Position numbers and translations under genes: made by a program
Shown here: positions 22,056-49,300 of the stretch, one piece after another
Numbering within the stretch: the stretch's first letter is position 1
Layout: each line of letters opens with the position of its first letter
Origin: Muricea muricata
Lineage: Eukaryota; Cnidaria; Anthozoa; Malacalcyonacea; Plexauridae
NCBI GenBank assembly: GCA_963855995.1
Contig: OY979719.1
Coordinates: 18,075,312-18,139,311, forward strand
Reading direction: 5' to 3'
DNA: 64,000 nucleotides
The notes under the pieces: generated by a model
Databases searched by the model: none
Told to the model about the DNA's origin: nothing
What the model saw: only the letters and a program-made list of their open reading frames with translations

Positions 22056-22317
22056 GGGACTGGTCATAAAGTATAGGGGGGGGGGGCTATGGAAATTGAG
22101 GGGTGGGTCATGAATTTTTCAAGTCACAAATAGGGGTGGGTCGTGAAAACGTTAAGGATATACTGGATGGATATTTAAGAATTTCTAGTGCCAAATAGGG
22201 GGTGGGTAATAATGTATATTTTGTGGGAAAATCAGGGGTGGGCCACACAAAATTAGTAATTAAAAGTAATAATTAAATTTTTATAGCCCCCCCCCCCTAT
22301 ACTTTATGAACAGTCCC
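22056..22317. mobile_element. MITE with poly-G terminal repeats, copy 1
   Basis: It starts GGGACTGGTCATAAAGTATA followed by a G run and ends with a C run, then TATACTTTATGAACAGTCCC. The interior carries spaced GGGTGGGTCATGAA-like repeats. A second copy of the family, in the opposite orientation, lies at 48837-49101 in a RALGAPA intron. Confidence 0.8.
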
Positions 22318-25099: not shown

Positions 25100-26333
25100 G
25101 GACCCGCCACCATGCAAATACATCTTTGGTCTTTGTTTGAAAACAGATTTGAAGCAAACAAGCTGGCGATTCATACTAATGTTTTTACCACTACCACTCG
25201 TTTTTGCTTCAGTATGCGGTATAAATTACTATATCTTTGGCTTTATTTTGGACCAAAAATTTGGCAAAATATTTCCGTGAGATTTGAACCTAACTGACGG
25301 ACAATTCGCACCTATGCTTTCACCACTAGACCACACGTTCAAGCTTGATCATATGGTATAAATAAATTATTTTCTAATTTACTTTAACCAATCTTTGGTC
25401 TTGATTTTAAGCAAAAATTTTTGCAAAAGACTTTGGCGAGATTTGAACGAGACTAACTTTACACCAATGGTTTCACCACTAGACCAATCATTCCCGATAG
25501 TTTGTAAGGTATTAATTATTGGTTTTGAACAACCTGTGGTCATTATTTAAAAAAAAAATTTGCAGGAGACTACAAGGGGATTTGAACCAGACTACCTGGC
25601 TAACCGCACCAACCGACGCCTTTACCACCAGACCACTTGTTCATGTTTTAACAAATGATGTAAATTATATACAAACTTTGGTCTTTATTTCAAACTAATA
25701 ATTTTGCAAAAGACTGCGGCGAGATTTGAACCAGACAAAGGGAAATTTACCCACATGGTTTTACCCACAAGAACACTCGTTTAATCTTGATGAAGCGATG
25801 AAAACATCGTCTTTAATCATAATTTTTCACCTTTACTTTAAACCAAAATGTTTGGTAAATGACTTAACGAGACTTGAACCAGCTAAAGGGCAATTCAAAC
25901 GAATGGTTTTACCTTTACACCAGACGTGCACTTCTTGAGAACGCGGTATAAATTATTGACTTTACCTAATTATTGATATTAATTTAAGGCAAAATTTTTG
26001 CAAAAACTTAAGTGGTATTTGAACCTGACACATTGCTGATTCATACAACAGCTTTTACCACTAGACCACTCATACATGATGGAATGCGTGATGTAAATTA
26101 TTGACTTCAAAAAACCCCTGTTTGCAAAAATTTTGGCTTAAAATAAAGACAAAAAATTGATTAAAGAAAATGATTTACCTCCTCCACTCAAGCAAATTAA
26201 TAAATGGTCTAGTGGTAATTACAATGGGTTTGATGGGTGTGAATTGCGTGTAAGCCGGTTCAAATCTCGCTGAAACCTTTTACAAAAATTTTGGCTTAAA
26301 ATACAGACAAAAAATTGATTAAAGAAAAATGAG
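25100..26333 (-). repeat. Diverged tandem array of tRNA-like repeats (left edge)
   Basis: About seven monomers, 140-160 bp apart, read on the minus strand. Each has a box-B-like stretch (rev. comp. of GAGATTTGAACC; near 25147, 25280, 25440, 25580, 25722, 25868, 26015) and, 40-55 bp on, a box-A-like stretch (rev. comp. of ACCACTAGACCA). One plus-strand monomer at about 26200-26280 has TGGTCTAGTGG and GGTTCAAATCTC. The monomers differ strongly from one another, unlike those at 38620-46110, but belong to the same family; the spacer pieces AAAATTTTTGCAAAAG and GTCTTTATTT recur. The array is cut at 26333 by the 3.3-kb satellite. Confidence 0.75.
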
Positions 26334-26474
26334 CACTACAGAGACGATAGGTATTAAATAAATGGAAATGTGTTTCGCTGATTGCATAAATGACCACGCA
26401 AATTATATTTTGATGTTTATGATAAAACTTACACAGCACGTTAATAACAGCAGCCTATATATAGATGCATGTGC

Positions 26475-26654
26475 GCATGGCAATAGTGCCCACCTGGTCG
26501 TAATTCAACCACAATCAGTGCAACAGCAAAGCATGACATATATAAATACAAATCGGTCGTACTATAGTATCACCGATTTGTATTTATATACGTCATGCTT
26601 TGCTGTTGCACTAATTGTGGTTGAATTACGACCAGGTAGGCACTATTGCCATGC
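26475..26654. repeat. 180-bp near-perfect palindrome, satellite copy 1
   Basis: Two arms of about 90 bp meet at ACTATAGT (centre 26564/26565). They run outwards to GCATGGCAATAGTGCC and its complement, with few mismatches. Equivalent palindromes lie at 29770-29949, 33065-33244 and 36364-36543. The second, diverged half of the unit has only the left arm (for example 28085-28172). Such a structure could extrude a cruciform or form a long RNA hairpin. Confidence 0.85.
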
Positions 26655-26686
26655 GTGATCATTTGCTTTTCTTCTTTTAAAATATC

Positions 26687-26940
26687 TGCCTGTACTTAGG
26701 GGAAACAGGCAGATCTCTGGAAACAAGAAAGGCTGAACACATCAGAAACGTTAAGGAACATAATAATGGTTCAAACATCGAAAAACGTGCAACGCGAAAA
26801 TCATTGACACAGGGAATTTCCGTAGTCGCCTAACACTAGAAAGTCTAGAATCATGGCATACAGCTGCCAAACACAGCAATGCTGATAACAACTCAAAACC
26901 GCTTCCTCGACAATGTACAATCTTAATAAAGAAAACATAG
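26687..26940 (+). pseudogene. Penelope-like element GIY-YIG remnant, satellite copy 1
   Basis: The frame from 26687 reads CLYLGETGRSLETRKAEHIR and then NVKEHNNGSNI, the YxG and helix region of the GIY-YIG nuclease carried by Penelope-like retroelements. After a frame change it continues NFRSRLTLESLESWHTAAKH and SNADNNSKPLPRQ, typical of the extreme C terminus of these elements. Frame breaks and the absence of a reverse transcriptase show it is dead. Confidence 0.7.
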
Positions 26941-27034
26941 TATCACCTTATCGTATTTCACAGTGCACATGTATACACGTCATATCTAGCTTCATTTCAC
27001 ACTTTCACAGTTTACTGCAATCATTATAAATATA

Positions 27035-27074
27035 CCCGTTGAAGGCTACAGACTGGTGGCCGAAAGCTCGTAAA
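27035..27074 (+). ncRNA. Hammerhead-like ribozyme motif, probably degraded
   Basis: CCGTTGA, then a 6-bp stem GGCTAC/GTGGCC (loop AGACTG), then GAAA reproduces the order of a hammerhead core (CUGANGA, stem II, GAAA). Penelope-like elements are known to carry hammerhead motifs in their terminal repeats. Here the core deviates (C-U-G-A becomes C-C-G-T), so cleavage is doubtful. The motif recurs at about 30330, 33629 and 36928, one per satellite unit. Confidence 0.4.
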
Positions 27075-28879
27075 CAAATAAATATATTTTAGTCAGAGAA
27101 CGTCTCACCCTTTTCATTTATGTCTAATTGACACATCTACGATTTTTAGTGGTTTATATTGTTTAACCGTTTCTTAAAGCTCATTCAGTGAAAAACGGGT
27201 AAAATAGGGCAAGTGTAATAGCCCTCGCGGTCTGGTGGTAAGGCAGTGTGGCGGTAAATAAACAACGCAGCTGAACGATAATTCCCTTGCTCTGAATTCT
27301 TTTCTTGTTTTAGAATTAATTATAGGCTAGAGAAAAGCCCGCTTAAACAATTTAAGTGGCAAGCGCGTGATAGCAAACATATATAGTCTAGTGGCCAATG
27401 CAAAATGTCTCAAGTCAACGAGTTTTTGGTCAAACCTAATTGCCCTTGTCACAAACCCCATAGGTTTTTGTCTGGGGTAAGAATTATTATAAATATACAC
27501 GCTAGATTAAATCAAAGTTATTCGAAGCCATTCGCGAGCTTTTGTTCGCATTTCATCGAATAATATTTAATCATACTCTGTCGAGGAAGACCTTGAAGTT
27601 GCTTTTGAGTGTAATTACATTTATATGCACAAATTTATTTCTAAATAAATCCAATTGAGTCTTTTGCAATATCACAATAACAAAAATGGGTAAGATCACA
27701 ACTTGAGCGTACAGTAGGTTTCTGGTGCTACGAATTTTAAAATCCCATATTTTTGTAAGTAGAACATTTGAAAGATAAATGTGTGTTGAAATCAGCCTTC
27801 TCTTATACTCGGAGAAGACCATGTAAATTCTGATCAAACATACATTTCCAAATTTAATGACCCAGCTATATGACGTTCAATATATACCATTGAACTAAAC
27901 AGATCACTATTTAAATCTAATGTCGAAGAACAATTTTATTGCTGAGGCACTACAGACACGATAAGTATTAAATAAATGGAAATGTTTTTCGCTGATTGCA
28001 TAAATGACCACGCAAATTATATTTTGATATGATAAAACTTATACAGCACGTTAATAACAGCAGCCTATATATAGATGCATGTGCGCATGGCAATAGTGTC
28101 TACCCGGTCGTAATTCAACCACAATCACTGCAACAGCAGAGCATGAGGTATATATATACAAATCGGTGATACTATATCTTGATGGTCTGATTCGAAGATA
28201 CAGGGTTTTAGCACTTACGGTCTGGGGGCCGCTTCTACCCTCCCCTATATTTCGAACCAGAGGTGGTGGAGTTTATGACACAGACGGTTGAGGCAGTCAA
28301 TTCGATGTCGTTGTCGAAAGGCAACCGCATTTGGTGGGTTGTCAAGGCCAATTGTGTGCGAAGCCACCCGTGCGCGCCATCCGTGTGCAAACTTTTATTA
28401 CAATATCCCGGTCCTTTTTACCATCGTTATACATTTCCAAGGCTAATCCTTCGAAGGTAGCAGAATTCCTGACACCTTTTGGAACCTTTTAATTTAAATT
28501 GATTACGCTGGCCGGCGTACAATCTCTTATGACGCTTTTCAATAGCCCTAATGTAAGTGGTAGAGCGTAATTCTTTTCAATTATTTATTTGGGGTTTTTT
28601 CGCCAAAAAAGATGGCTCCCACCTTTAAGAAAAACTATAGCATTTTGAGCACGGTTTTTTGTTCAATTTTTTTCGATGGTTTTTTAGAACTTTTATTTTC
28701 TCCATTTACCAAAAATTTTGCCAGTGCGGTTAACAAGGAAATAATAATTTTTCTTTATCAGACTGTATGATAAAAAGAAGTAATTGTCAAATTGTGACGA
28801 ATTTTTTTCTAAAAAAATTTGCAAAATAGACGAAAAGATACTTTGGAAAGGGTTATTAATTCTTACGCAAGACGAAAAC

Positions 28880-29140
28880 TATTTAATGCATGGCAAGGGC
28901 AGGAATTGATCCTACCCACGTTTGTAGGGTAATTTGTATTTGACCACTGCATTACGTTGGTTATGAGGCTTCGGCAAGTTGGTTTAAGTTGTCTATACGT
29001 TCTTCTAGCCTGTGCTTAATTCTTGAAACTGACGAAGTCCAGAACGATTTTTATCAAAGGTAGGTGTTGCTTCCGGACTCAGTGATTGATTCTGAAGGGA
29101 TACACATTGTCTTTACCACTGGACTATGTTAGTTACAACT
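28880..29140 (-). repeat. Two decayed tRNA-like monomers inside the 3.3-kb unit
   Basis: On the minus strand, TAGTCCAGTGG (near 29125) fits box A and is followed by AGAATCAATC, a poor box B. About 160 bp upstream on this strand GGATCAATTCC (near 28908) and GCAGTGG (near 28948) form a second, weaker pair. The spacing equals the period of the flanking tRNA-like arrays, so the large unit seems to have captured old monomers. The segment recurs in copies 2 and 3. Confidence 0.45.
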
Positions 29141-29981
29141 TTCTATGTTAGTTACCACTTTGACTGGGTTAAGAATTATTATAGATATACACGCTAGATT
29201 AAATCAAAGTTATTCGAAGCCATTCGCGAGCTTTTGTTCGCATTTCATCGAATAATATTTAATCATACTCTGCTTTTGAGTGTAATTACATTTTTAAATT
29301 ATGTACAAATCTATTTCTAAATAAATCCAATTGAGTCTTTTGCAATATCACAAATAACAAAAATGGGTAAGGTCAAAACTTGAGCATATAGTAGGTTTCT
29401 GGTGCTACGAATTTTAAAAGCCTATATTTTTGTGAGTAATAAAACATTTGAAAAATAAATGTGTGTTGAAATCAGCCTTCTCTTATACTCGGAGAAGACC
29501 TTGTAAATTCTGATCAAACATACTTTTCCAAATATAATGACTTAGCTATAGGCGTCCACTATATATATCATTGAACAAAGCAGATCACTATTTAAATCTA
29601 ATTTCGAAGAACAACATTATTGCTGGATCACTACAGAGACGATAAGTATTAAATAAATGGAAATGTGTTTCGCTGATTGCATAAATGACCACGCAAATTA
29701 TATTTTGATGTTTATGATAAAACTTACACAGCATGTTAATAACAGCAGCCTATATATAGATGCATGTGCGCATGGCAATAGTGCCTACCTGGTCGTAATT
29801 CAACCACAATCAGTGCAACAGCAAAGCATGACGTATATAAATACAAATCGGTCGTACTGTAGTATCACCGATTTGTATTTATATACGTCATGCTTTGCTG
29901 TTGCACTAATTGTGGTTGAATTACGACCAGGTAGGCACTATTGCCATGCGTGATCATTTGCTTTTCTTCTTTTAAAATATC

Positions 29982-30235
29982 TGCCTGTACTTAGGGGAAA
30001 CAGGCAGATCTCTGGAAACAAGAAAGGCTGAACACATCAGAAACGTTAAGGAACATAATAATGGTTCAAACATCGAAAAACGTGCAACGCGAAAATCATT
30101 GACACAGGGAATTTCCGTAGTCGCCTAACACTAGAAAGTCTAGAATCATGGCATACAGCTGCCAAACACAGCAATGCTGATAACAACTCAAAACCGCTTC
30201 CTCGACAATGTACAATCTTAATAAAGAAAACATAG
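29982..30235 (+). pseudogene. Penelope-like GIY-YIG remnant, satellite copy 2
   Basis: Same remnant, 3295 bp after the first and virtually identical, with the same frame breaks. The damage therefore predates the amplification. Confidence 0.7.
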
Positions 30236-33200
30236 TATCACCTTATCGTATTTCACAGTGCACATGTATACACGTCATATCTAGCTTCATTTCACACTTT
30301 CACAGTTTACTGCAATCATTATAAATATACCCGTTGAAGGCTACAGACTGGTGGCCGAAAGCTCGTAAACAAATAAATATATTTTAGTCAGAGAACGTCT
30401 CACCCTTTTCATTTATGTCTAATTGACACATCTACGATTTTTAGTGGTTTATATTGTTTAACCGTTTCTTAAAGCTCATTCAGTGAAAAACGGGTAAAAT
30501 AGGGCAAGTGTAATAGCCCTCGCGGTCTGGTGGTAAGGCAGTGTGGCGGTAAATAAACAACGCAGCTGAACGATAATTCCCTTGCTCTGAATTCTTTTCT
30601 TGTTTTAGAATTAATTATAGGCTAGAGAAAAGCCCGCTTAAACAATTTAAGTGGCAAGCGCGTGATAGCAAACATATATAGTCTAGTGGCCAATGCAAAA
30701 TGTCTCAAGTCAACGAGTTTTTGGTCAAACCTAATTGCCCTTGTCACAAACCCCATAGGTTTTTGTCTGGGGTAAGAATTATTATAAATATACACGCTAG
30801 ATTAAATCAAAGTTATTCGAAGCCATTCGCGAGCTTTTGTTCGCATTTCATCGAATAATATTTAATCATACTCTGTCGAGGAAGACCTTGAAGTTGCTTT
30901 TGAGTGTAATTACATTTATATGCACAAATTTATTTCTAAATAAATCCAATTGAGTCTTTTGCAATATCACAATAACAAAAATGGGTAAGATCACAACTTG
31001 AGCGTACAGTAGGTTTCTGGTGCTACGAATTTTAAAATCCCATATTTTTGTAAGTAGAACATTTGAAAGATAAATGTGTGTTGAAATCAGCCTTCTCTTA
31101 TACTCGGAGAAGACCATGTAAATTCTGATCAAACATACATTTCCAAATTTAATGACCCAGCTATATGACGTTCAATATATACCATTGAACTAAACAGATC
31201 ACTATTTAAATCTAATGTCGAAGAACAATTTTATTGCTGAGGCACTACAGACACGATAAGTATTAAATAAATGGAAATGTTTTTCGCTGATTGCATAAAT
31301 GACCACGCAAATTATATTTTGATATGATAAAACTTATACAGCACGTTAATAACAGCAGCCTATATATAGATGCATGTGCGCATGGCAATAGTGTCTACCC
31401 GGTCGTAATTCAACCACAATCACTGCAACAGCAGAGCATGAGGTATATATATACAAATCGGTGATACTATATCTTGATGGTCTGATTCGAAGATACAGGG
31501 TTTTAGCACTTACGGTCTGGGGGCCGCTTCTACCCTCCCCTATATTTCGAACCAGAGGTGGTGGAGTTTATGACACAGACGGTTGAGGCAGTCAATTCGA
31601 TGTCGTTGTCGAAAGGCAACCGCATTTGGTGGGTTGTCAAGGCCAATTGTGTGCGAAGCCACCCGTGCGCGCCATCCGTGTGCAAACTTTTATTACAATA
31701 TCCCGGTCCTTTTTACCATCGTTATACATTTCCAAGGCTAATCCTTCGAAGGTAGCAGAATTCCTGACACCTTTTGGAACCTTTTAATTTAAATTGATTA
31801 CGCTGGCCGGCGTACAATCTCTTATGACGCTTTTCAATAGCCCTAATGTAAGTGGTAGAGCGTAATTCTTTTCAATTATTTATTTGGGGTTTTTTCGCCA
31901 AAAAAGATGGCTCCCACCTTTAAGAAAAACTATAGCATTTTGAGCACGGTTTTTTGTTCAATTTTTTTCGATGGTTTTTTAGAACTTTTATTTTCTCCAT
32001 TTACCAAAAATTTTGCCAGTGCGGTTAACAAGGAAATAATAATTTTTCTTTATCAGACTGTATGATAAAAAGAAGTAATTGTCAAATTGTGACGAATTTT
32101 TTTCTAAAAAAATTTGCAAAATAGACGAAAAGATACTTTGGAAAGGGTTATTAATTCTTACGCAAGACGAAAACTATTTAATGCATGGCAAGGGCAGGAA
32201 TTGATCCTACCCACGTTTGTAGGGTAATTTGTATTTGACCACTGCATTACGTTGGTTATGAGGCTTCGGCAAGTTGGTTTAAGTTGTCTATACGTTCTTC
32301 TAGCCTGTGCTTAATTCTTGAAACTGACGAAGTCCAGAACGATTTTTATCAAAGGTAGGTGTTGCTTCCGGACTCAGTGATTGATTCTGAAGGGATACAC
32401 ATTGTCTTTACCACTGGACTATGTTAGTTACAACTTTCTATGTTAGTTACCACTTTGACTGGGTTAAGAATTATTATAGATATACACGCTAGATTAAATC
32501 AAAGTTATTCGAAGCCATTCGCGAGCTTTTGTTCGCATTTCATCGAATAATATTTAATCATACTCTGCTTTTGAGTGTAATTACATTTTTAAATTATGTA
32601 CAAATCTATTTCTAAATAAATCCAATTGAGTCTTTTGCAATATCACAAATAACAAAAATGGGTAAGGTCAAAACTTGAGCATATAGTAGGTTTCTGGTGC
32701 TACGAATTTTAAAAGCCTATATTTTTGTGAGTAATAAAACATTTGAAAAATAAATGTGTGTTGAAATCAGCCTTCTCTTATACTCGGAGAAGACCTTGTA
32801 AATTCTGATCAAACATACTTTTCCAAATATAATGACTTAGCTATAGGCGTCCACTATATATATCATTGAACAAAGCAGATCACTATTTAAATCTAATTTC
32901 GAAGAACAACATTATTGCTGGATCACTACAGAGACGATAAGTATTAAATAAATGGAAATGTGTTTCGCTGATTGCATAAATGACCACGCAAATTATATTT
33001 TGATGTTTATGATAAAACTTACACAGCATGTTAATAACAGCAGCCTATATATAGATGCATGTGCGCATGGCAATAGTGCCTACCTGGTCGTAATTCAACC
33101 ACAATCAGTGCAACAGCAAAGCATGACGTATATAAATACAAATCGGTCGTACTGTAGTATCACCGATTTGTATTTATATACGTCATGCTTTGCTGTTGCA

Positions 33201-33276
33201 CTAATTGTGGTTGAATTACGACCAGGTAGGCACTATTGCCATGCGTGATCATTTGCTTTTCTTCTTTTAAAATATC

Positions 33277-33534
33277 TGCCTGTACTTAGGGGAAACAGGC
33301 AGATCTCTGGAAACAAGAAAGGCTGAACACATCAGAAACGTTAAGGAACATAATAATGGTTCAAACATCGAAAAACGTGCAACGCGAAAATCATTGACAC
33401 AGGGAATTTCCGTAGTCGCCTAACACTAGAAAGTCTAGAATCATGGCATACAGCTGCCAAACACAGCAATGCTGATAACACTGAACTCAAAACCGCTTCC
33501 TCGACAATGTACAATCTTAATAAAGAAAACATGG
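33277..33534 (+). pseudogene. Penelope-like GIY-YIG remnant, satellite copy 3
   Basis: Same remnant with four extra bases near 33478-33485 compared with copies 1 and 2, giving ADNTELK before an extra A. ADNTELKPLPRQ is closer to the usual Penelope tail, so copies 1 and 2 probably carry the derived deletion. Confidence 0.7.
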
Positions 33535-36500
33535 TATCACCTTATCGTATTTCACAGTGCACATGTATACACGTCATATCTAGCTTCATTTCACACTTTC
33601 ACAGTTTACTGCAATCATCATAAATATACCCGTTGAAGGCTACAGACTGGTGGCCGAAAGCTCGTAAACAAATAAATATATTTTAGTCAGAGAACGTCTC
33701 ACCCTTTTCATTTATGTCTAATTGACACATCTACGATTTTTAGTGGTTTATATTGTTTAACCATTTCTTAAAGCTCATTCAGTTAAAAACGGGTAAAATA
33801 GGGCGAGTGTAATAGCCAACGCGGTCTGGTGGTAAGGCAAAGTGGCGGTAAATAAACAACGCAGCTGAACGATAATTCCCTTGCTCTGAATTCTTTTCAC
33901 GTTTTAGAATTAATTATAGGCTAGAGAAAAGCCCGCTTAAACAATTTAAGTGGCAAGCGCGTGATAGCAAACACATATAGTCTAGTGGCCAATGCAAAAT
34001 GTCTCAAGTCAACGAGTTTTTGGTCAAACCTAATTGCCCTTGTCACAAACCCCATAGGTTTTTGTCTGGGGTAAGAATTATTATAAATATACACGCTAGA
34101 TTAAATCAAAGTTATTCGAAGCCATTCGCGAGCTTTTGTTCGCATTTCATCGAATAATATTTACTCATACTCTGTCGAGGAAGATCTTGAAGTTGCTTTT
34201 GAGTGTAATTACATTTATATGCACAAATTTATTTCTAAATAAATCCAATTGAGTCTTTTGCAATATCACAATAACAAAAATGGGTAAGATCACAACTTGA
34301 GCATACAGTAGGTTTCTGGTGCTACGAATTTTAAAATCCCATATTTTTGTAAGTAGAACATTTGAAAGATAAATGTGTGTTGAAATCAGCCTTCTCTTAT
34401 ACTCGGAGAAGACCATGTAAATTCTGATCAAACATACATTTCCAAATTTAATGACCCAGCTATATGACGTTCAATATATACCATTGAACTAAACAGATCA
34501 CTATTTAAATCTAATGTCGAAGAACAATTTTATTGCTGAGGCACTACAGACACGATAAGTATTAAATAAATGGAAATGTTTTTCGCTGATTGCATAAATG
34601 ACCACGCAAATTATATTTTGATATGATAAAACTTATACAGCACGTTAATAACAGCAGCCTATATATAGATGCATGTGCGCATGGCAATAGTGTCTACCCG
34701 GTCGTAATTCAACCACAATCACTGCAACAGCAGAGCATGAGGTATATATATACAAATCGGTGATACTATATCTTGATGGTCTGATTCGAAGATACAGGGT
34801 TTTAGCACTTACGGTCTGGGGGCCGCTTCTACCCTCCCCTATATTTCGAACCAGAGGTGGTGGAGTTTATGACACAGACGGTTGAGGCAGTCAATTCGAT
34901 GTCGTTGTCGAAAGGCAACCGCATTTGGTGGGTTGTCAAGGCCAATTGTGTGCGAAGCCACCCGTGCGCGCCATCCGTGTGCAAACTTTTATTACAATAT
35001 CCCGGTCCTTTTTACCATCGTTATACATTTCCAAGGCTAATCCTTCGAAGGTAGCAGAATTCCTGACACCTTTTGGAACCTTTTAATTTAAATTGATTAC
35101 GCTGGCCGGCGTACAATCTCTTATGACGCTTTTCAATAGCCCTAATGTAAGTGGTAGAGCGTAATTCTTTTCAATTATTTATTTGGGGTTTTTTCGCCAA
35201 AAAAGATGGCTCCCACCTTTAAGAAAAACTATAGCATTTTGAGCACGGTTTTTTGTTCAATTTTTTTCGATGGTTTTTTAGAACTTTTATTTTCTCCATT
35301 TACCAAAAATTTTGCCAGTGCGGTTAACAAGGAAATAATAATTTTTCTTTATCAGACTGTATGATAAAAAGAAGTAATTGTCAAATTGTGACGAATTTTT
35401 TTCTAAAAAAATTTGCAAAATAGACGAAAAGATACTTTGGAAAGGGTTATTAATTCTTACGCAAGACGAAAACTATTTAATGCATGGCAAGGGCAGGAAT
35501 TGATCCTACCCACTTTTGTAGGGTAATTTGTATTTGACCACTGCATTACGTTGGTTATGAGGCTTCGGCAAGTTGGTTTAAGTTGTCTATACGTTCTTCT
35601 AGCCTGTGCTTAATTCTTGAAACTGACGAAGTCCAGAACGATTTTTATCAAAGGTAGGTGTTGCTTCCGGACTCAGTGATTGATTCTGAAGGGATACACA
35701 TTGTCTTTACCACTGGACTATGTTAGTTACAACTTTCTATGTTAGTTACCACTTTGACTGGGTTAAGAATTATTATAGATATACACGCTAGATTAAATCA
35801 AAGTTATTCGAAGCCATTCGCGAGCTTTTGTTCGCATTTCATCGAATAATATTTAATCATACTCTGCTTTTGAGTGTAATTACATTTTTAAATTATGTAC
35901 AAATCTATTTCTAAATAAATCCAATTGAGTCTTTTGCAATATCACAAATAACAAAAATGGGTAAGGTCAAAACTTGAGCATATAGTAGGTTTCTGGTGCT
36001 ACGAATTTTAAAAGCCTATATTTTTGTGAGTAATAAAACATTTGAAAAATAAATGTGTGTTGAAATCAGCCTTCTCTTATACTCGGAGAAGACCTTGTAA
36101 ATTCTGATCAAACATACTTTTCCAAATATAATGACTTAGCTATAGGCGTCCACTATATATATCATTGAACAAAGCAGATCACTATTTAAATCTAATTTCG
36201 AAGAACAACATTATTGCTGGATCACTACAGAGACGATAAGTATTAAATAAATGGAAATGTGTTTCGCTGATTGCATAAATGACCACGCAAATTATATTTT
36301 GATGTTTATGATAAAACTTACACAGCATGTTAATAACAGCAGCCTATATATAGATGCATGTGCGCATGGCAATAGTGCCTACCTGGTCGTAATTCAACCA
36401 CAATCAGTGCAACAGCAAAGCATGACGTATATAAATACAAATCGGTCGTACTGTAGTATCACCGATTTGTATTTATATACGTCATGCTTTGCTGTTGCAC

Positions 36501-36575
36501 TAATTGTGGTTGAATTACGACCAGGTAGGCACTATTGCCATGCGTGATCATTTGCTTTTCTTCTTTTAAAATATC

Positions 36576-36833
36576 TGCCTGTACTTAGGGGAAACAGGCA
36601 GATCTCTGGAAACAAGAAAGGCTGAACACATCAGAAACGTTAAGGAACATAACAATGGTTCAAACATCGAAAAACGTGCAACGCGAAAATCATTGACACA
36701 GGGAATTTCCGTAGTCGCCTAACACTAGAAAGTCTAGAATCATGGCATACAGCTGCCAAACACAGCAATGCTGATAACACTGAACTCAAAACCGCTTCCT
36801 CGACAATGTACAATCTTAATAAAGAAAACATGG
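36576..36833 (+). pseudogene. Penelope-like GIY-YIG remnant, satellite copy 4
   Basis: Same form as copy 3, including the four extra bases. This supports pairwise homogenisation of copies 3 and 4. Confidence 0.7.
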
Positions 36834-38619
36834 TATCACCTTATCGTATTTCACAGTGCACATGTATACACGTCATATCTAGCTTCATTTCACACTTTCA
36901 CAGTTTACTGCAATCATCATAAATATACCCGTTGAAGGCTACAGACTGGTGGCCGAAAGCTCGTAAACAAATAAATATATTTTAGTCAGAGAACGTCTCA
37001 CCCTTTTCATTTATGTCTAATTGACACATCTACGATTTTTAGTGGTTTATATTGTTTAACCATTTCTTAAAGCTCATTCAGTTAAAAACGGGTAAAATAG
37101 GGCGAGTGTAATAGCCAACGCGGTCTGGTGGTAAGGCAAAGTGGCGGTAAATAAACAACGCAGCTGAACGATAATTCCCTTGCTCTGAATTCTTTTCACG
37201 TTTTAGAATTAATTATAGGCTAGAGAAAAGCCCGCTTAAACAATTTAAGTGGCAAGCGCGTGATAGCAAACACATATAGTCTAGTGGCCAATGCAAAATG
37301 TCTCAAGTCAACGAGTTTTTGGTCAAACCTAATTGCCCTTGTCACAAACCCCATAGGTTTTTGTCTGGGGTAAGAATTATTATAAATATACACGCTAGAT
37401 TAAATCAAAGTTATTTGAAGCCATTCGCGAGCTTTTGTTCGCATTTCATCGAATAATATTTACTCATACTCTGTCGAGGAAGATCTTGAAGTTGCTTTTG
37501 AGTGTAATTACATTTATATGCACAAATTTATTTCTAAATAAATCCAATTGAGTCTTTTGCAATATCACAATAACAAAAATGGGTAAGATCACAACTTGAG
37601 CGTACAGTAGGTTTCTGGTGCTACGAATTTTAAAATCCCATATTTTTGTAAGTAGAACATTTGAAAGATAAATGTGTGTTGAAATCAGCCTTCTCTTATA
37701 CTCGGAGAAGACCATGTAAATTCTGATCAAACATACATTTCCAAATTTAATGACCCAGCTATATGACGTTCAATATATACCATTGAACTAAACAGATCAC
37801 TATTTAAATCTAATGTCGAAGAACAATTTTATTGCTGAGGCACTACAGACACGATAAGTATTAAATAAATGGAAATGTTTTTCGCTGATTGCATAAATGA
37901 CCACGCAAATTATATTTTGATATGATAAAACTTATACAGCACGTTAATAACAGCAGCCTATATATAGATGCATGTGCGCATGGCAATAGTGTCTACCCGG
38001 TCGTAATTCAACCACAATCACTGCAACAGCAGAGCATGAGGTATATATATACAAATCGGTGATACTATATCTTGATGGTCTGATTCGAAGATACAGGGTT
38101 TTAGCACTTACGGTCTGGGGGCCGCTTCTACCCTCCCCTATATTTCGAACCAGAGGTGGTGGAGTTTATGACACAGACGGTTGAGGCAGTCAATTCGATG
38201 TCGTTGTCGAAAGGCAACCGCATTTGGTGGGTTGTCAAGGCCAATTGTGTGCGAAGCCACCCGTGCGCGCCATCCGTGTGCAAACTTTTATTACAATATC
38301 CCGGTCCTTTTTACGATCGTTATACATTTCCAAGGCTAATCCTTCGAAGGTAGCAGAATTCCTGACACCTTTTGGAACCTTTTAATTTAAATTGATTACG
38401 CTGGCCGGCGTACAATCTCTTATGACGCTTTTCAATAGCCCTAATGTAAGTGGTAGAGCGTAATTCTTTTCAATTATTTATTTGGGGTTTTTTCGCCAAA
38501 AAAGATGGCTCCCACCGTTAAGAAAAACTATAGCATTTTGAGCACGGTTTTTTGTTCAATTTTTTTCGATGGTTTTTTAGAACTTTTATTTTCTCCATTT
38601 ACCAAAAATTTTGCCAGTG

Positions 38620-41600
38620 GTAAATAATTTTCTTTAATCAATTTTTTGTCTTTATTTTAAGCCAAAATTTTTGTAAAAGGCTTCGGCGATATTTGAACCA
38701 ACTTACACGCAAATCACGCATTTCACACCCATTACAAATACCACTAGACCACTTGTTCAATTGCTTGCGTGGAGGAGGTAAATGATTTTCTTTAATCAAT
38801 TTTTTGTCTTTATTTTAAGCCAAAATTTTTGTAAATGGCTTCAGCTAGTTTTGAACCAGCTTACAAGCAATGCACACCGGTACCCAATGTTTTACCACTA
38901 GACCACTTGTTTATTTGCAAGCGTGCAAGTGGTAAATAATTTTCTTTAATCAATTTTTTGTCTTTATCTTAAGCCAAAATTTTTGTAAAAGGCTTCGGCG
39001 ATATTTGAACCAACGTACACGCAAATCAGGCATTTCACACCCATTACAAATACCACTAGACCACTTGTTCAATTGCTTGAGTGGAGGAGGTAAATCATTT
39101 TCTTTAATCAATTTTTTGTCTTTATTTTAAGCCAAAATTTTTGCAAAAGGCTTCAGCTAGTTTTGAACCAGCTTACAAGCAATGCATACCCAATGTTTTA
39201 CCACTAGACTACTTGTTTATTTGCTAGCGTGCAAGTGGTAAATAATTTTCTTTAATCAATTTTTTGTCTTTATTTTAAGCCAAAATTATTGTAAAAGGCT
39301 TCGGCGAGATTTGAACCAACTTACACGCAAATCACGCATTTCACAGCCATTGCAAATACCACTAGACCACTTGTTCAATTGCTTGAGTGGAGGAGGTAAA
39401 TCATTTTCTTTAATCAATTTTTTGTCTTTATTTTAAGTCAAAATTTTTGTAAAAGGCTTCAGCGAGAGTTGAACCAACTTACACGCAATTCACACCGATC
39501 ACACCCATTGCAATTACCACTAGACCACTTGTTCATTTGCTTGAGTGGAGGAGGTAAATCTTTTTTTTGATCAATTTTTTGTCTTTATTTTAAGCCAAAA
39601 TTTTTGCAAGAGGCTCAGCTAGCTTTGAACCAGCTTACAAGCAAAGATGGGTGTGAATTGCGTGTAAGCTGGTTCAAATCTCGCTTAAGCCTTTTACAAA
39701 AATTTTGCCTTGAAATAAAGACAAACAATTGATAAAAGAAAATGATTTACCTCCTCCACTCAAGCAAATGAACAAGTGGTCTAGTGGTATTTGCAATGGG
39801 TTTGATGGGTGTGAATTGCGTGTAAGCCGGTTCAAATCTCGCTGAAACCTTTTACAAAAATTTTGGCTTAAAATACAGACAAAAAATTGATTAAAGAAAA
39901 TGATTTACGTCCTCCACTGAAGCAAATTAACAAGTGGCCTAGTGGTAAATACAATGGGTGTGATGGGTGTGAATTGCGTGTGAACCAGCTTACAGGCAAT
40001 TCACACCCATTACAATTACCACTAGACCACTTGTTCATGTGCTTGAGTGGAGGAGGTAAATCATTTTCTTTAATCAATTTTTTTGTCTTTATTTTAAGCC
40101 AAAATTTTTGCAAAATTTAAAGGCTTCAGCTAGCTTTGAACCAGCTTACAAGCAATGCACACCCAATGTTTTTACCACTAGACCACTTGTTTATTTGCTA
40201 GCGTGCAAGTGGTAAATAATTTTCTTTAATCAATTTTTTGTCTTTATTTTAAGCCAAAATTTTTGTAAAAGGCTTCGGCGAGATTTGAACCAAATTACAC
40301 GCAAATCATGCATTTCACACCCATTGCAAATACCACTAAATCACTTGTTCAATTGCTTGAGTGGAGGAGGTAAATCATTTTCTTTAATCAATTTTTTGTC
40401 TTTATTTTAAGCCAAAATTTTTGCAAAAGGCTTCAGCTAGTTTTGAACCAGCTTACAAGCAATGCACACCGGTACCCAATGTTATACCACTAGACCACTT
40501 GTTTATTTGCTAGCGTGCAAGTGGTAAATAATTTTCTTTAATCAATTTTTTGTCTTTATCTCAAGCCAAAATTTTTGTAAAAGGCTTCGGCGAGATTTGA
40601 ACCAACTCACACGCAAATCAGGCATTTCACACCCATTGCAAATACCACTAGACCACTTATTCAATTGCTTGAGTGGAGGAGGTAAATCATTTTCTTTAAT
40701 CAATTTTTTGTCTTTATTTTAAGCCAAAATTTTTGCAAAAGGCTTCAGCTAGTTTTGAACCAGCTTACAAGCAATGCACACCCAATGTTTTACCACTAGA
40801 CCACTTTTTTATTTGCTAACGTGCAAAAGGTAAATAATTTTCTTTAATCAATTTTTTGTCTTTATTTTAAGCCAAAATTTTTGTAGAAGGCTTCGGCGAG
40901 ATTTGAACCAACTTACACGCAAATCACGCATTTCACACCCATTGCAAATAGACCACTTGTTCAATTACTTGAGTGGAGGAGGTAAATCATTTTCTTTAAT
41001 CAATTTTTTGTCTTTATTTTAAGCCAAAATTTTTGTAAAAGGCTTCAGCTAGTTTTGAACCAGCTTACAAGCAATGCACACCGGTACCCAATTCTTTACC
41101 ACTAAACCACTTGTTTATTTGCTAGCGTGCAAGAGGGAAATAATTTTCTTTAATCAATTTTTTGTCTTTATCTTAAGCCAAAATTTTTGTAAAAGGCTTC
41201 GGCGAGATTTGAACCAACTCACACGCAAATCAGGCATTTCACACCCATTGCAAATACCACTAGACCACATATTCAATTGCTTGAGTGGAGGAGGTAAATC
41301 ATTTTCTTTAATCAATTTTTTGTCTTTATTTTAAGCCAAAATTTTTGCAAAAGGCTTCAGCTAGTTTTGAACCAGCTTACAAGCAATGCACACCCAATGT
41401 TTTACCACTAGACCACTTGTTTATTTGCTAGCGTGCAAGTGGTAAATAATTTTCTTTAATCAATTTTTTGTCTTTATTTTAAGCCAAAATTTTTGTAGAA
41501 GGCTTCGGCGAGATTTGAAGCAACTTACACGCAAATCACGCATTTCACACCCATTGCAAATACCACTAGACCACTTGTTCAATTGCTTGAGTGGAGGAGG

Positions 41601-44600
41601 TAAATCATTTTCTTTAATCAATTTTTTGTCTTTATTTTAAGCCAAAATTTTTGCAAAAGGCTTCAGCTAGTTTTGAACCAGCTTACAAGCAATGCACACC
41701 CAATGTTTTACCACTAGACCACTTGTTTAATTGCTAACGTGCAAGTGGTAAATAATTTTCTTTAATCAATTTTTTGTCTTTATTTTAAGCCAAAATTTTT
41801 GTAGAAGGCTTCGGCGAGATTTGAACCAACTTACACGCAAATCACGCATTTCACACCCATTGCAAATACCACTAGACCACTTGTTCAATTACTTGAGTGG
41901 AGGAGGTAAATCATTTTCTTTAATCAATTTTTTGTCTTTATTTTAAGCCAAAATTTTTGTAAAAGGCTTCAGCTAGTTTTGAACCAGCTTACAAGCAATG
42001 CACACCGGTACCCAATTCTTTACCACTAAACCACTTGTTTATTTGCTAGCGTGCAAGAGGGAAATAATTTTCTTTAATCAATTTTTTGTCTTTATCTTAA
42101 GCCAAAATTTTTGTAAAAGGCTTCGGCGAGATTTGAACCAACTTACACGCAAATCACGCATTTCACACCCATTGCAAATTCCACTAGACCACTTGTTCAA
42201 TTGCTTGCGTGGAGGAGGTAAATCATTTTCTTTAATCAATTTTTTGTCTTTGTTTTAAGCCAAAATTTTTGTAAAAGGCTTCAGCGAGAGTTGAACCTAC
42301 TTACACGCAATTCACACCCATCACACCCATTGCAAATACCACTAGACCACTTGTTCATTTGCTTGAGTGCAGGAGGTAAATATTTTTTTTGATCAATTTT
42401 TTGTCTTTATTTTAAGCCAAAATTTTTGCAAGAGGCTCAGCTAGCTTTGAACCAGCTTACAAGCAAAGATGGGTGTGAATTGCGTGTAAGCTGGTTCAAA
42501 TCTCGCTTAAGCCTTTTACAAAAATTTTGGCTTGAAATAAAGACAAAAAATTGATTAAAGAAAATGATTTACCTCCTCCACTCAAGTAAATGAACAAGTG
42601 GCATTTGCAATGGATGTGATGGGAGGGAATTGCGTGTAAGCTGGTTCAAATTTCGCTGAAGCCTTTTACAAAAAATTTGGCTTAAAATAAAGACAAAAAA
42701 TTGATTAAAGAAAACGATTTACCTTTTGCACTTAAGCAAATAAACAAGTGGCCTAGTGGTAAAAACATTAGTTGTGCTTTGCCTGTAACCTGGTTCAAAG
42801 CTAGCTGAAGCCTTTTGCAAAAATTTTGGCTTGAAATAAAGACAAAAAATTGATTAAAGAAAATGATTTACCTCTTCCACTCTAGCAGATGAACAAGTGG
42901 TCTAGTGGTATTTGCAATGGGTTTGATGGGTGTGAATTGCGTGTAAGCTGGTCAAATCTCGCTGAAACCTTTTACAAAAATTTTGGCTGAAAATAAAGAC
43001 AAAAAATTGATTAAAGAAAATTATTTACCTTCTGCACGCAAGCAAATAAGCAAGTGGTTTAGTGGTAAAAACACAGGGTGTGCATTGCTTGTAAGCTGGT
43101 TCAAAGCTAGCTGAAACCTTTTACAAAAATTTTGGCTTAAAATAAAGACAAAAAATTGATTAAAGAAAATGATTTACCTCCTCCACTCAAGCAAATTAAT
43201 AAATGGTCTAGTGGTAATTACAATGGGAGTGATGGGTGTGAATTGCGTGTAAGCTGGTTCAAATCTCCCTGAAGGCTTTTACAAAAATTTTGGCTTAAAA
43301 TAAAGACAAAAAATTGATTAAAGAAAATTATTTACCTCTTCCACTCAAGCAAATGAACAAGTGGTCTAGTGGTATTTGCAATGGTTGTGATGGGTGTGAA
43401 TTGCGTGTAAGTTGGTTCAAATCTCGCTGAAACCTTGTACAAAAATTTTGGCTTAAAATAAAGACAAAAAATTGATTAAAGAAAATGATTTACCTCCTCC
43501 ACTCAAGCAAATTAACAAGTGGTCTAGTGGTAATTACGATAAGTGTGGTGGGTGTGAAGTGCGTGATTTGCGTGTAAGTTGGTTCAAATCTCGCCGCAGC
43601 CTTTTACAAAAATTTTGGCTTAAGATAAAGACAAAAAATTGATAAAAGAAAATTATTTACCACTTGCACGTTAGCTAATAAACAAGTGTTCTAGTGGTAG
43701 AAACATTTGGTGTGCATTGCTTGTAAGCTGGTTTAAAGCTAGCTGAGCCTTTTGCGAAAATTTTGGCTTAAAATAAAGACAAAAAATTGATTAAACCGAA
43801 GAAAATGATTTACCTCCTCCACTCAAGCAAATGAACAAGTGGTCTAGTGGTATTTGCAATGGGTTTGATGGGTGTGAATTGCGTGTAAGCTGGTTCAAAT
43901 CTCGTTGAAACCTTTTACAAAAATTTTGGCTGAAAATAAAGACAAAAAATTGATTAAAGAAAATTATTTACCTTTTGCACGCAAGCAAATAAGCAAGTGA
44001 TCTAGTGGTAAAAACATAGGCTGTGCATTGCTTGTAAGCTGGTTCAAAGCTAGCTGAGCCTTTTACAAAAATTTTGGCCTAAAATAAAGACAAAAAATTG
44101 ATTAAAGAAAATGATTTACCTCCTCCACTCAAGCAAATGAACAAGTGATCTAGTGGTATTTGCAATGGGTGTAATGGGCGTGAAATGCGTTTAAGCTGGT
44201 TCAAATCTCGCTGAAACCTTTTACAAAAATTTTGGCTTAAAATAAAGACAAAAAATTGATTAAAGAAAATGATTTACCTCCTCCACTCAAGCAAATTAAT
44301 AAATGGTCTAGTGGTAATTACAATGGGTGTGATGGGTGTGAAGTGCGTGTAAGCTGGTTCAAATCTCCCTGAAGGCTTTTACAAAAATTTTGGCTTAAAA
44401 TAAAGACAAAAAATTGATTAAAGAAAATGATTTACCTCCTCCACTCAAGCGAATGAACAAGTGGTCTAGTGGTATTTGCAATGGTTGTGATGGGTGTGAA
44501 TTGCGTGTAAGTTGGTTCAAATCTCGCTGAAACCTTGTACAAAAATTTTGGCTTAAAATAAAGACAAAAAATTGATTAAAGAAAATGATTTACGTCCTCC

Positions 44601-46110
44601 ACTCAAGCAAATTAATAAATAGTCTAGTGGTAATTACAATGGGTGTGATGGGTGTGAATTGCGTGTAAGCTGGTTCAAATCTCCCTGAAGGCTTTTACAA
44701 AAATTTTGGCTTAAAATAAAGACAAAAAATTGATTAAAGAAAATTATTTACCACTTGCACGCTAGCAAATAAACAAGTGGTCTAGTGGTAAAAACATTGG
44801 GTGTGCATTGCTTGTAAGCTGGTTCAAAGCTAGCTGAAGCCTTCTGTAAATATTTTGGCTTAAAATAAAGACAAAAAATTGAGTAAAGAAAATGATTTTC
44901 CTCCTCCACTCAAGCAAATTAACAAGTGGTCTAGTGGTAATTACAATAAGTGTGATGGGTGTGAAGTGCGTGATTTGCGTGTAAGTTGGTTCAAATCTCG
45001 CCGCAGCCTTTTACAAAAATTTTGGCTTAAAATAAAGACAAAAAATTGATAAAAGAAAATTATTTACCACTTGCACGTTAGCTAATAAACAAGTGTTCTA
45101 GTGGTAAAAACATTTGGTGTGCATTGCTTGTAAGCTGGTTCAAAGCTAGGTGAGCCTTTTGCGAAAATTTTGGCTTAAAATAAAGACAAAAAATTGATTA
45201 AACTCATTAAAGAAAATGATTTACCTCCACCACTCAAGCAAATGAACAAGTGGTCTAGTGGTATTTGCGATGGGTGTGATGGGTGTGAATTGCGTTTAAG
45301 CTGGTTCAAATCTCGCTGAAACCTTTTACAAAAATTTTGGCTTAAAATAAAGACAAAAAATTGATTAAAGAAAATGATTTACCTCCTCCACTCAAGCAAA
45401 TTAATAAATGGTCTAGTGGTAATTGCAATGGGTGTGATGGGTGTGAATTGCGTGTAAGCTGGTTCAAATCTCCCTGAAGGCTTTTACAAAAATTTTGGCT
45501 TAAAATAAAGACAAAAAATTGATTAAAGAAAATGATTTACCTCCTCCACTCAAGCAATTGAACAAATGGTCTAGTGGTATTTGCAATGGGTGTGAAATGC
45601 GTGATTTGCGTGTAAGTTGGTTGAAATCTCGTCGAAGCCTTTTACAAAAATTTTGGCTTAAAATAAAGACAAAAATTGATTAAAGAAAATTATTTACCAC
45701 TTGCACGCTAGCAAATAAACAACTGGTCTAGTGGTAAAAACATTGGGTGTGCATTGCTTGTAAGCTGGTTCAAAGCTAGCTGAAGCCTTCTGTAAATATT
45801 TTGGCTTAAAATAAAGACAAAAAATTGAGTAAAGAAAATGATTTACCTCCTTCTCTCAAGCACATGAACAAGTGGTCTAGTGGTAATTGTAATGGGTCTG
45901 AATTGCCTGTTAGCTGGTTGCAATCTCGTTGGAATCTCTCACCAAATTGTTGCCAAAAAGTAATACAAATAAGAGCAAAAAGTTTGTTAAGGTCGATAAT
46001 CTACACCTCATGCTCACGAATAAATGATTGGTTTAGTGGTAAAGGCTTTCGTGCGGGTTATTAGCTGATATAGTTTGAGTCTCGCTGAAGATTTTTGCCA
46101 AAAATTTTGG
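38620..46110. repeat. Homogenised tandem array of tRNA-like repeats, about 47 monomers
   Basis: Monomers of 148-162 bp are linked by AAATTTTGGCTTAAAATAAA and GACAAAAAATTGATTAAAGA. Orientation: minus 38620-39645, plus 39650-39985, minus 39985-42465, plus 42470-46110. Two types mostly alternate. Type 1 has TGGTCTAGTGG (box A) and GGTTCAAATCTC (box B) 52 bp apart. Type 2 has box A and GGTTCAAAGC 43 bp apart, the normal tRNA distance. In type 2 the T arm pairs fully (GCTGG-TTCAAAG-CTAGC) and three of four D-stem pairs form, but the anticodon and acceptor stems do not. A TTTT, the Pol III stop, lies about 14 bases after box B. The last monomer (46020-46110) is diverged, as at the left edge. A 924-bp higher-order period is visible (41074 against 41998). 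Confidence 0.9.
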
Positions 46111-46369
46111 CTTAAAATAAAGATAAAAAATGCTTGAAATAAGTCGAAAAGTGCTGAATTTTGTTTTACTTCACTCCAAGAATAAACTGCTTTAATGGTA
46201 CACAAAAGAGTTTAATGATTGCTTAAAATGGTGTCGCATTTGACCTATTTTGAGGCTCTAACCCAGTCTCTCATGAATTCTCTGCCTGCTCGGTCATCTT
46301 GAAAACAAACAAGATGGACACCTTTCAGGAAATTTCAAAATTATAGCAAAGTAAAAATGCAAGGTAAAA
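46111..46369 (+). promoter_or_regulatory. RALGAPA 5' flank with possible upstream ORFs
   Basis: Only 260 bp separate the tRNA-like array from the RALGAPA start. If transcribed, this leader holds three short upstream ORFs: ATG at 46273 (9 codons), at 46314 (10 codons) and at 46357, the last overlapping the true start in another frame. Transcription start and promoter elements are not evident. Confidence 0.35.
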
Positions 46370-49300
46370 ATGTTTCACAGTAAAAAGGCTCAGGTGGATT
46401 TTAAGAGAGTTACGCAGAAGTTTCTGGATGCAAAAAGGGAATCAAGACAGAGAGCTAATGCTCTACGGACTTTGCTAGGTAAGTTGAACCCATCACAGCA
46501 GTTTTTATGGAGCTCTACCCTCTAGGCATTCTAGCAAGGCTGAACTTAATATAGATAAACGGATAGGCTAGCATATTCCAGGAAAAATAATGAATACTGC
46601 TTTAAATTGCCTACACTTGACTTTGGTTGGTGTAGGAAATTGACTTAAATTCACACTTCAGTTTCAAACTGTTCTTCCTAGAGGGACAGTTTCCTGGGAA
46701 AGTAAGGATCATATCTCTTACTGATTCAGTGTTACAACATAAGGGAACCATAACTAAACTAAGTTTATTTCTCGTAAGGATCATCTCTTATTGTTCTAGT
46801 GTTACTACAGGAGGAAACCTGAACTAAACTTTAACTGTTTCCATTGGATACCTCTGTCACTTCTAGACTGTTCTTCCCAGAGGTCCTGTAAGAATCACAC
46901 TTATTGATCCATTATTACTACAGGAGGAACCCTAAACTAAACTAACTCTATTTATACTGGATAGCTCTATCAGTTCTAGACTGTTCTTCTTAGTGGTCCA
47001 GTAAGGATCATCCCTTATTGATCCATTGTTACTGCTGGAGGAAACCTAAACTAAACTACCTCACTGCATTCCATGTATTCCACCCCAGAGATCAACGTGC
47101 ATTTAGCAAATCAGAATTGTCAGTACTAGATATTGGCAAATCACTGGTGTGGATTTTACATAGAATGCACCATGGCTAAACTAACTTTATTTGTACTGGA
47201 TAGCTCTATCAGTTCTAAACTGTTCTTCCTAGAGTTCCAGTAAGAATCATCTCTTATTGATCCAGTGTTCCTACTGGAGGGAAACTAAATAAACTATATA
47301 ATTTTTTTATACTGGTTAGCTCTATCAGTTCTAAACTGTTCGTCCTGGGGGTCCAGTAAGGATTATCTCTTATTTCCAGTGTTACTACAGGAGGAAACCT
47401 AAACTAAACTAACTTTATTTATACTGGGTAGCTCTATCAGTTCTAAACTGTTCTTCCTAGAGGTCCAGTAAGGATCATCTCTTATTGATCCAGTGTTACT
47501 ACAGAAGAAAACCTAAACTAAACTAACTTTATTTATACTGGATAGCTCTATCAGTTCTAAACTGTTCTTCCTAGAGATCCAGTAGGGATCATCTCTTATT
47601 GATCCAGTGTTACTGTTACTGCAAATACTCATATATTATTTTGTATTCTCGTCATGTTTTAATCTGTGTCCTCAGTTTCAAAATGCTAATCTTTGGATTA
47701 TGTTTTACACTCAAAATTTTTTGAAATTGTCAGTTAATGGTTTTTGTATAGATCAAAACTATTGGCTATGAATGGATTTATCCCAGCAACTTATTATTTT
47801 CAGACAACTTCGAAAGCCATGAAGCTAAGGTGTTTTTCCAGCGACATTACTCAGAAATATACTACGTTTGCCACGATTATTTTTCAATAGTTGAAGTCAA
47901 TCTCAGGCAAAAAGGTAACTGTCGTGATAAACAGAATTAACTGTTTAATTTATTCTAATTGTTCTAAATATTCCAAATGAATGTACTCTTGTGGAAAATT
48001 TGCTGTCAACAGTTGCAAAAAAGTGGGTTTCTATGGTGTGGATATTTGGTTTTCTCATTTATAAGCTGTGCAAAAATGGTGGTGTACAGGGGTTTGCTAG
48101 GCCCTTGGGGCACAGTATAGCGAGAATTTGGAGTGGGGGCTCTTGGCAAACTCAAAGTCATTTAAAATTTGATGTAAACATGAATGGTGCAATGGGTTAT
48201 AATATGTATTTGTGGACTTGAATCAAGTCTGTCTCTTGAATATAGTGTGGGTGGGCAAGGCAAGAAATATGAAGCAGAGAGGCAGACTTGTTACCCTATA
48301 ATGCACCAATCTCACTAGTTCAAATTTTTTTCGAGGTGATGAGATAAACGTCACTGCTAATATTACCCATTACAAGGTAGTTTATTTTTTGCCTACACAG
48401 CCACACTAAATGCAAAAGGCAGACTTACAGCAGGTCTATAATATGTAGTACTTGATGTATTCACTATTCGGTTACATAAAGGTTTTGATGTGAAGTGAAA
48501 TGAATGGGCTATGTGGCATATACTATGCTGTACTTACTAGTAACTGTAAATTTAAATGTGTTTGATTTTTTCATAGCCAACAAATCAGTGAGAGAAGATC
48601 TTGACTGTGTGCTGATCATATTTGAGGTAGGCAGACATGAACTGATATTGTAAAACTATTTATGGTGCAAATATATACAAATTATACAGTCTTTAATGTC
48701 TGCTGTATTATAAATTAGTATAGCATGCTCACAGACGTTTTTCTCATTAATATGGCCAGTGTGCATATAAACATAGTGTTCGATACAGTATGTTTGATCA
48801 AAGGTCATTTGCTGTGGTGTTACTAGTGACTAATTAGGGACTGGTCATAAAGTATAGGGGGGGGGGGCTATAAAAATTTAATTGATATTAAAAGGCTAAT
48901 TTTGTGTGGCCCACCCTGATTTTCCTACAAAATATACATGACCCACCCCCTATTTGGCACTAGAAATCCTTAAATATCCCCCCAGTATATCCTTAAAATT
49001 TTCATGACCCACCCCCTTTTGTGACTTGAAAAACTCATGACCCACCCCTCAATCTCCATAGCCCCCCCCCCCCCCCACCCCTATACTTTATGACCAGTCC
49101 CTTCCCCATAAAGGGCCTTTGATTGGAACATGTCATTCCTGGTAGTAGATCTTGTATGTACATATGTATGTTTTTGTTTTTATTATCAGTTCTCCCTTAA
49201 ATTTGTTACTCATTAATTATGTGTACCGCTGCTTAGCCAGTGTGCTAAAGAGAGGCCTTCACCCCCTGAAACTAGTCAATATTGCTACTAAAAATTTTCA

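What the first reader, a model, noticed from the sequence alone, without database searches (positions are those of the whole stretch)
38620..46110. Satellite made of about 47 potential RNA polymerase III units
Seen: each 155-bp monomer carries box A (TGGTCTAGTGG), box B (GGTTCAAA...) and a nearby TTTT. In type 2 monomers the boxes are 43 bp apart as in tRNA genes and the T arm pairs fully, yet the acceptor stem is gone. Known: these boxes bind TFIIIC. Inference: the array may make many short Pol III RNAs, or act as a TFIIIC-binding boundary between gene-free DNA and the RALGAPA promoter 260 bp away. Box and T-arm conservation across diverged monomers hints at selection or at transcription-dependent spread.
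Basis: partly seen in the sequence, partly recalled or inferred. Interest (0 to 1): 0.75.

Follow-up and report, generated by a model that had tools for sequence, protein, structure and literature searches.

The report
Octocoral satellite carrying Pol III boxes
A soft-coral chromosome carries dozens of tandem copies of a short unit that keeps the two DNA signals of a tRNA-gene promoter but not the tRNA itself; such tRNA-like satellites are known from amphibians and reptiles, and whether this one is transcribed or acts as a chromatin boundary is untested.

Summary
The repeat and its boxes are real. The array at 38634-46131 holds 51 monomer hits (43 near full length). It has 31 exact pairs of box A and box B on one strand, starts 42-61 bp apart, against 0.01 expected by chance. 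In the young array the boxes are not better conserved than other DNA (private mutations 9/932 against 53/5505 cells). In seven old, diverged monomers that tile their stretch the boxes are better conserved (pairwise identity 0.84/0.85 against 0.62, p 0.005); 0 of 800 neutral simulations reach the excess, some narrowly. The T stem is not conserved there (18 of 32 cells) and no tRNA is recognised. Constraint, if real, was on DNA boxes rather than on an RNA. Best reading: a tRNA-related satellite of a known kind (newt PolIII/TAN, Xenopus OAX, squamate SINE satellites), in an octocoral. Transcription and boundary function remain untested.

The parts
38634..39645 (-). Satellite block (6 near-full monomers and a partial), boxes on minus strand
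39641..40015 (+). Short satellite block in plus orientation (1 near-full monomer and 2 partials)
39978..42467 (-). Satellite block, mostly alternating type 1 / type 2 dimers of about 306 bp
42463..45831 (+). Satellite block, mixed type 1 / type 2 monomers, pointing to RALGAPA
45835..46131 (+). Two diverged edge monomers; box A kept, box B degraded
44778..44788 (+). Example box A of a type 2 monomer
44821..44831 (+). Example box B of the same type 2 monomer
39561..39742 (.). Orientation junction, inverted repeat (arms 55 nt, 87% complementary)
42382..42565 (.). Second, similar orientation junction (arms 56 nt, 91% complementary)
25144..26102 (-). Seven old, diverged monomers of the same satellite in tandem; boxes A and B better conserved than the rest
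26118..26322 (+). One and a part young monomers at the left rim of the 3.3-kb array
26331..38619 (.). Unrelated 3.3-kb tandem repeat, about 3.7 copies, 98.8-99.7% identical, lying inside the satellite where its orientation flips

Best explanation
This is a tRNA-related satellite. A small unit with a type II Pol III promoter (a tRNA-like or SINE-head sequence that had already lost its cloverleaf) became tandem. It was spread and homogenised by unequal exchange and inversion, and it kept the two TFIIIC recognition boxes while its RNA fold decayed. Shown here: the boxes, their spacing, the T run after box B, the old and young monomer layers, and box-specific conservation in the old layer only. 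Inferred: the tRNA descent, that the old constraint came from TFIIIC/Pol III recognition, and that intact monomers can still bind TFIIIC and give occasional unstructured RNAs of about 80-100 nt. Such RNAs would be a by-product. A selected role of the young array, as RNA source or boundary, is not shown.
For: 31 exact A-B pairs in the array against 0.01 by chance. T run after box B and none between the boxes. Old monomers: pairwise identity box A 0.844, box B 0.853, rest 0.617, window-pair permutation p 0.005. An alignment of the seven old and two edge copies made without young copies gives p 0.007, with box A ranked 1 and box B 14 of 128 windows. Fisher on 152 box cells against 741 others, scored on the old copies' own consensus, p 3e-6, cells treated as independent. 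Neutral simulations with realignment: 0 of 200 in each of four settings reach the observed excess. Base-matched: C and G sites 0.90-0.92 in boxes against 0.56-0.58 elsewhere. RNA stem not conserved in old copies (18 of 32 cells) and folding z near 0. Rim copies most diverged, as expected of unequal exchange. Precedents in print.
Against: No tRNA model matches: none in the array at E 1, none in the old block at E 10, where the nearest thing is a tRNA-like-structure pseudoknot at E 7.4. tRNA descent therefore rests on the boxes, their spacing and a likeness to tRNA-Glu that is recalled. By aligned letters only 2 of 7 old copies keep both boxes to the strict consensus, 6 of 7 at least one; both right-edge copies have a degraded box B. 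The old-layer test rests on 7-9 monomers of one locus. Other blocks are conserved there too (windows at columns 1-5 and 113). Some simulations come close: largest 0.194 against 0.197 observed (nine rows) and 0.211 against 0.224 (seven rows), both with rate variation. The young array shows no box excess. No interspersed SINE relative could be sought.
Confidence: 0.62

Rival explanations
1. The array is a cluster of TFIIIC sites (extra-TFIIIC-like) that marks a chromatin boundary between repeat-rich DNA and the RALGAPA promoter; binding, not transcription, is what is selected. (Shares the origin given in the best explanation.)
For: Conservation in old copies is at DNA boxes and not at the RNA stem. 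The array ends about 240 bp before the RALGAPA start codon. Extra-TFIIIC clusters with strong box A and B, near heterochromatin edges, exist in C. elegans (PMC6950938: abstract, section headings and passages), and ETC sites act as heterochromatin barriers (PMC12409998, passages).
Against: No sign of box constraint in the young array next to the gene. The monomers nearest the gene have a degraded box B. The box conservation lies 20 kb away. No chromatin data.
Confidence: 0.14
2. The array is a source of many short Pol III RNAs with a role of their own. (Shares the origin given in the best explanation.)
For: Boxes, spacing and T run fit transcripts of about 66-103 nt, assuming a start 15 nt before box A. 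Newt PolIII/TAN can be transcribed in vitro, as told in PMC10702118.
Against: Predicted RNAs fold no better than shuffles (mean z +0.61, -0.76, -0.25 for type 1, type 2, old; two monomers were swapped between types in that call). T stem not conserved across groups. Opposed blocks would give both strands.
Confidence: 0.07
3. Plain neutral satellite: boxes are there because one founder had them, and the excess in the old copies is chance or a recombination effect.
For: Private mutations in the young array are as frequent in boxes as elsewhere, and the A-rich spacer is its best-conserved part (columns 124-153, pairwise 0.967). The old-layer excess is only just beyond the largest simulated ones.
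Against: Old-copy tests; a founder with both boxes by chance is itself improbable (about 0.01 pairs per 7.5 kb).
Confidence: 0.25

Closest known systems
PolIII/TAN (Hirt) tandem family of the newt Cynops pyrrhogaster (Nagahashi et al. 1991; the paper itself not held; seen as described and cited in PMC10702118)
   Same: Tandem repeat with a tRNA-like sequence; no matching SINE known; the cited title says tRNA-Glu, and the box A letters here look Glu-like by recall
   Different: Unit about 360 nt against about 148-167 bp; amphibian; in vitro transcription reported there, not tested here
OAX / satellite I of Xenopus (Ackerman 1983, not held; Lam and Carroll 1983; both as described in PMC10702118)
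   Same: Tandem repeat with a tRNA-derived segment, transcribed in oocytes according to the cited title
   Different: Longer unit; vertebrate; transcription reported there
SINE-derived satellites of squamates (PMC10702118, outline, abstract and passages)
   Same: Units of 67-215 nt in the passages seen, made from SINE pieces, the snake unit with box B; arrays of variable homogeneity
   Different: The source SINE is known there; no source SINE found here
Extra-TFIIIC clusters (C. elegans, PMC6950938, abstract and passages)
   Same: Many box A/B sites close together in repeat-rich DNA
   Different: Defined by ChIP without Pol III; median interval 1207 bp against about 155 bp here; no binding data here
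Long tandem arrays of plant Cassandra retroelements (PMC7215508, search listing only; their 5S-type Pol III promoter is recalled)
   Same: Tandem arrays of a unit with a Pol III promoter
   Different: Retroelement with terminal repeats and a 5S-type promoter, in plants

Membership tests
tRNA-related / Pol III tandem repeat (PolIII/TAN, OAX kind) | Tandem array of one unit | tested here: met
tRNA-related / Pol III tandem repeat (PolIII/TAN, OAX kind) | Box A and box B at tRNA-like spacing on one strand | tested here: met
tRNA-related / Pol III tandem repeat (PolIII/TAN, OAX kind) | Recognisable tRNA similarity beyond the boxes | tested here: not met
   No tRNA by ARAGORN at default or Rfam; acceptor stem absent. 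Relaxed ARAGORN gives 32 weak hits in the window, 12 in the array and 2 in the left block, of mixed anticodon. So it is filed as a satellite with Pol III boxes of this kind, not as a proven tRNA descendant.
tRNA-related / Pol III tandem repeat (PolIII/TAN, OAX kind) | Transcription by Pol III | not testable with these tools
   Needs RNA or in vitro transcription
SINE-derived satellite | Interspersed SINE of matching sequence in the same genome | not tested
   The genome search gave no answer; none in this 64-kb window outside the two blocks at E 0.01
Extra-TFIIIC cluster / boundary | TFIIIC occupancy without Pol III | not testable with these tools
   Needs ChIP
Functional tRNA gene cluster | Recognisable tRNA with acceptor stem | tested here: not met

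The most novel reading that the evidence does not exclude
A cnidarian satellite whose long-lived copies are kept as TFIIIC docking sites, with selection on the DNA boxes and not on any RNA: a satellite-based extra-TFIIIC cluster that marks a domain border beside RALGAPA.
Probability: 0.12. Interest if true: 0.75.

Novelty: new member of a known kind. Interest (0 to 1): 0.42.

Why it matters
The tandem repeats with tRNA-type Pol III boxes that I saw described come from amphibians and reptiles. A cnidarian case with old and young layers side by side lets one ask whether TFIIIC boxes are kept after the RNA fold is lost, a test that needs only octocoral genomes and one ChIP or small-RNA data set.

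Tried and rejected
Functional tRNA genes: rejected. Known Rfam families: the eight sub-threshold miRNA hits at E 1 or better (39593-39710, 39913-40051, 42437-42509) lie at or beside orientation junctions and are best read as hairpins made by opposed monomers (the middle junction was not examined). Structure in predicted transcripts: mean z near 0. T-arm conservation: rejected for type 1 and old copies. Further satellite remnants outside the two blocks: only hits with E 0.28 or worse. Relatives in viral and prokaryotic collections: 0 matches to exact patterns in four scans, as expected for animal DNA.

Own errors found on the way: a first typing rule swapped two monomers (42232, 42711); one search corrects it and gives the same T-stem counts. 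In one search part of the A-B spacing list is wrong because a box of a neighbouring monomer was taken; the box A of old copy 25525 is a shifted match, so its count of 3 old copies with both boxes should be 2. One search recounts the spacing on the alignment. The simulations are somewhat more diverged than the real copies (0.53-0.58 outside the boxes against 0.62).

Full report
Source. The window is animal DNA, most likely from an octocoral. The reading frame at 18111-18902 is 76% identical to a synaptotagmin-14-like protein of Dendronephthya gigantea, the only named one of 19 hits; an unnamed record reaches 91% (lineage). RALGAPA: the frame at 50860-51230 matches two RALGAPA2 chains (E 1e-7 and 9e-7), and an exon starting at 46370 reads like the RALGAPA N terminus by recall.

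Anatomy. An iterated nhmmer profile finds 60 monomer hits in the window: 51 at 38634-46131 and 9 at 25144-26322. TRF gives periods of 158 and 306 bp. Two types exist, 27 type 1 and 16 type 2 among 43 near-full monomers, mostly alternating as dimers in the minus-strand blocks. The type consensus sequences differ at 25 columns, none in columns 114-153 or 1-5. The blocks change strand at about 39645, 39980-40015 and 42465; the first and last junctions are similar inverted repeats. The left block (25144-26322) and the right array are separated by 12.3 kb of an unrelated 3.3-kb tandem repeat (26331-38619; copies 98.8-99.7% identical). The satellite is in plus orientation on the left rim of that repeat and in minus orientation on the right rim.

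Pol III signals. Exact matches to TRGYNNARNNG followed by GGTTCRANNC on one strand: 31 pairs in the array, 4 in the left block (one a shifted match), 0 in three other stretches of 25,000, 12,289 and 17,869 bp; the Markov mean is 0.01 per array length, with a maximum of 1 in 300 runs. 31 of 43 near-full young monomers keep both boxes. Box starts are 52 bp apart in 23 of 27 type 1 and 42, 43 or 48 in all 16 type 2 monomers; 37-47 in the seven old and 43 in the two edge copies. T4 follows box B within 21 nt in 41 of 43 young and 7 of 7 old monomers, and none lies between the boxes in 52. If starts lie 15 nt before box A (about 10 bp in type II genes according to PMC12409998, passages), the RNAs would be 66-103 nt.

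Young copies: the boxes are not special. Pairwise identity is box A 0.950, box B 0.894, rest 0.864, permutation p 0.16, while the spacer columns 124-153 reach 0.967 (51 rows, partial ones included). Private mutations: 9 in 932 box cells against 53 in 5505 others, p 1.0 (43 rows). Old copies: the seven tile 25144-26102 with gaps under 20 bp, so they were not picked for their boxes. Box A 0.844, box B 0.853, rest 0.617; permutation p 0.005. With the two right-edge copies added and an alignment made without young copies: 0.859, 0.775, 0.620, p 0.007, box A first and box B fourteenth of 128 windows. Scored on the old copies' own consensus: 140/152 against 565/741, p 3e-6. Simulated neutral copies, realigned the same way, with and without rate variation: 0 of 200 in each of four settings reach the observed excess, the closest being 0.194 against 0.197 with nine rows and 0.211 against 0.224 with seven. 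Against this: the edge copies have a degraded box B, 2 of 7 old copies have both boxes intact by the strict consensus, and all of it is one locus.

RNA or DNA. The T stem is complete in 14 of 16 type 2 monomers, but all 27 type 1 have 3 or 4 of 5 pairs, and old copies pair at 18 of 32 cells against 9 of 34 to 16 of 31 when slid. Predicted RNAs fold like shuffles. No tRNA is found by ARAGORN at default or Rfam, at gathering in the window, at E 1 in the array or at E 10 in the old block. If the old boxes were under constraint, it was on DNA recognition and not on RNA shape.

Mechanism. Most likely a tRNA-related unit turned satellite and was homogenised by unequal exchange; the diverged rims at both ends fit that. 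In an earlier phase the boxes were held, presumably by TFIIIC/Pol III recognition (inferred). The young array now shows no such filter. Binding of TFIIIC by the intact monomers is plausible; function is not shown.

What is known. PMC10702118 (outline, abstract and passages) lists newt PolIII/TAN, Xenopus OAX, Rana/polIII and Hydromantes Hy/polIII as tandem families with real or doubtful tRNA-like parts, and describes SINE-derived satellites in squamates. PMC12692304 (passages) names SINEs among satellite sources. PMC6950938 (abstract and passages) and PMC12409998 (passages) describe extra-TFIIIC sites and barriers. PMC3744447 (abstract) describes TFIIIC binding to SINEs. The listings of ten paper searches (one search showed 15 of 26 papers, the others all they found) showed no title or abstract start about a cnidarian satellite with Pol III boxes; most subscription papers are outside that library. 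So this is a new member of a known kind; the old-layer box signal is the one point worth a wider test.

Noticed in passing
26331-38619: A 3.3-kb tandem repeat, about 3.7 copies at 98.8-99.7% identity, with a 182-bp palindrome (about 95% self-complementary) and a 725-bp internal duplication (about 89%), sits inside the satellite where its orientation flips.
   Followed up: partly
38634-46131: In the young array, type 1 and type 2 consensus are identical over alignment columns 114-153 and 1-5 (A-rich spacer) but differ at 25 columns elsewhere; this zone may be one of preferred gene conversion or of constraint, and it is not conserved in the old copies.
   Followed up: partly
46774-47614: A separate 114-bp tandem repeat (7.3 copies), probably in the first RALGAPA intron, just after the satellite.
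   Followed up: no
60359-60604: A 49-copy ATACC microsatellite directly after the reading frame at 59315-60358.
   Followed up: no
22056-22320 and 48834-49101: Dispersed inverted repeat of about 270 bp, 87.6% identical, on both sides of the satellite region.
   Followed up: no
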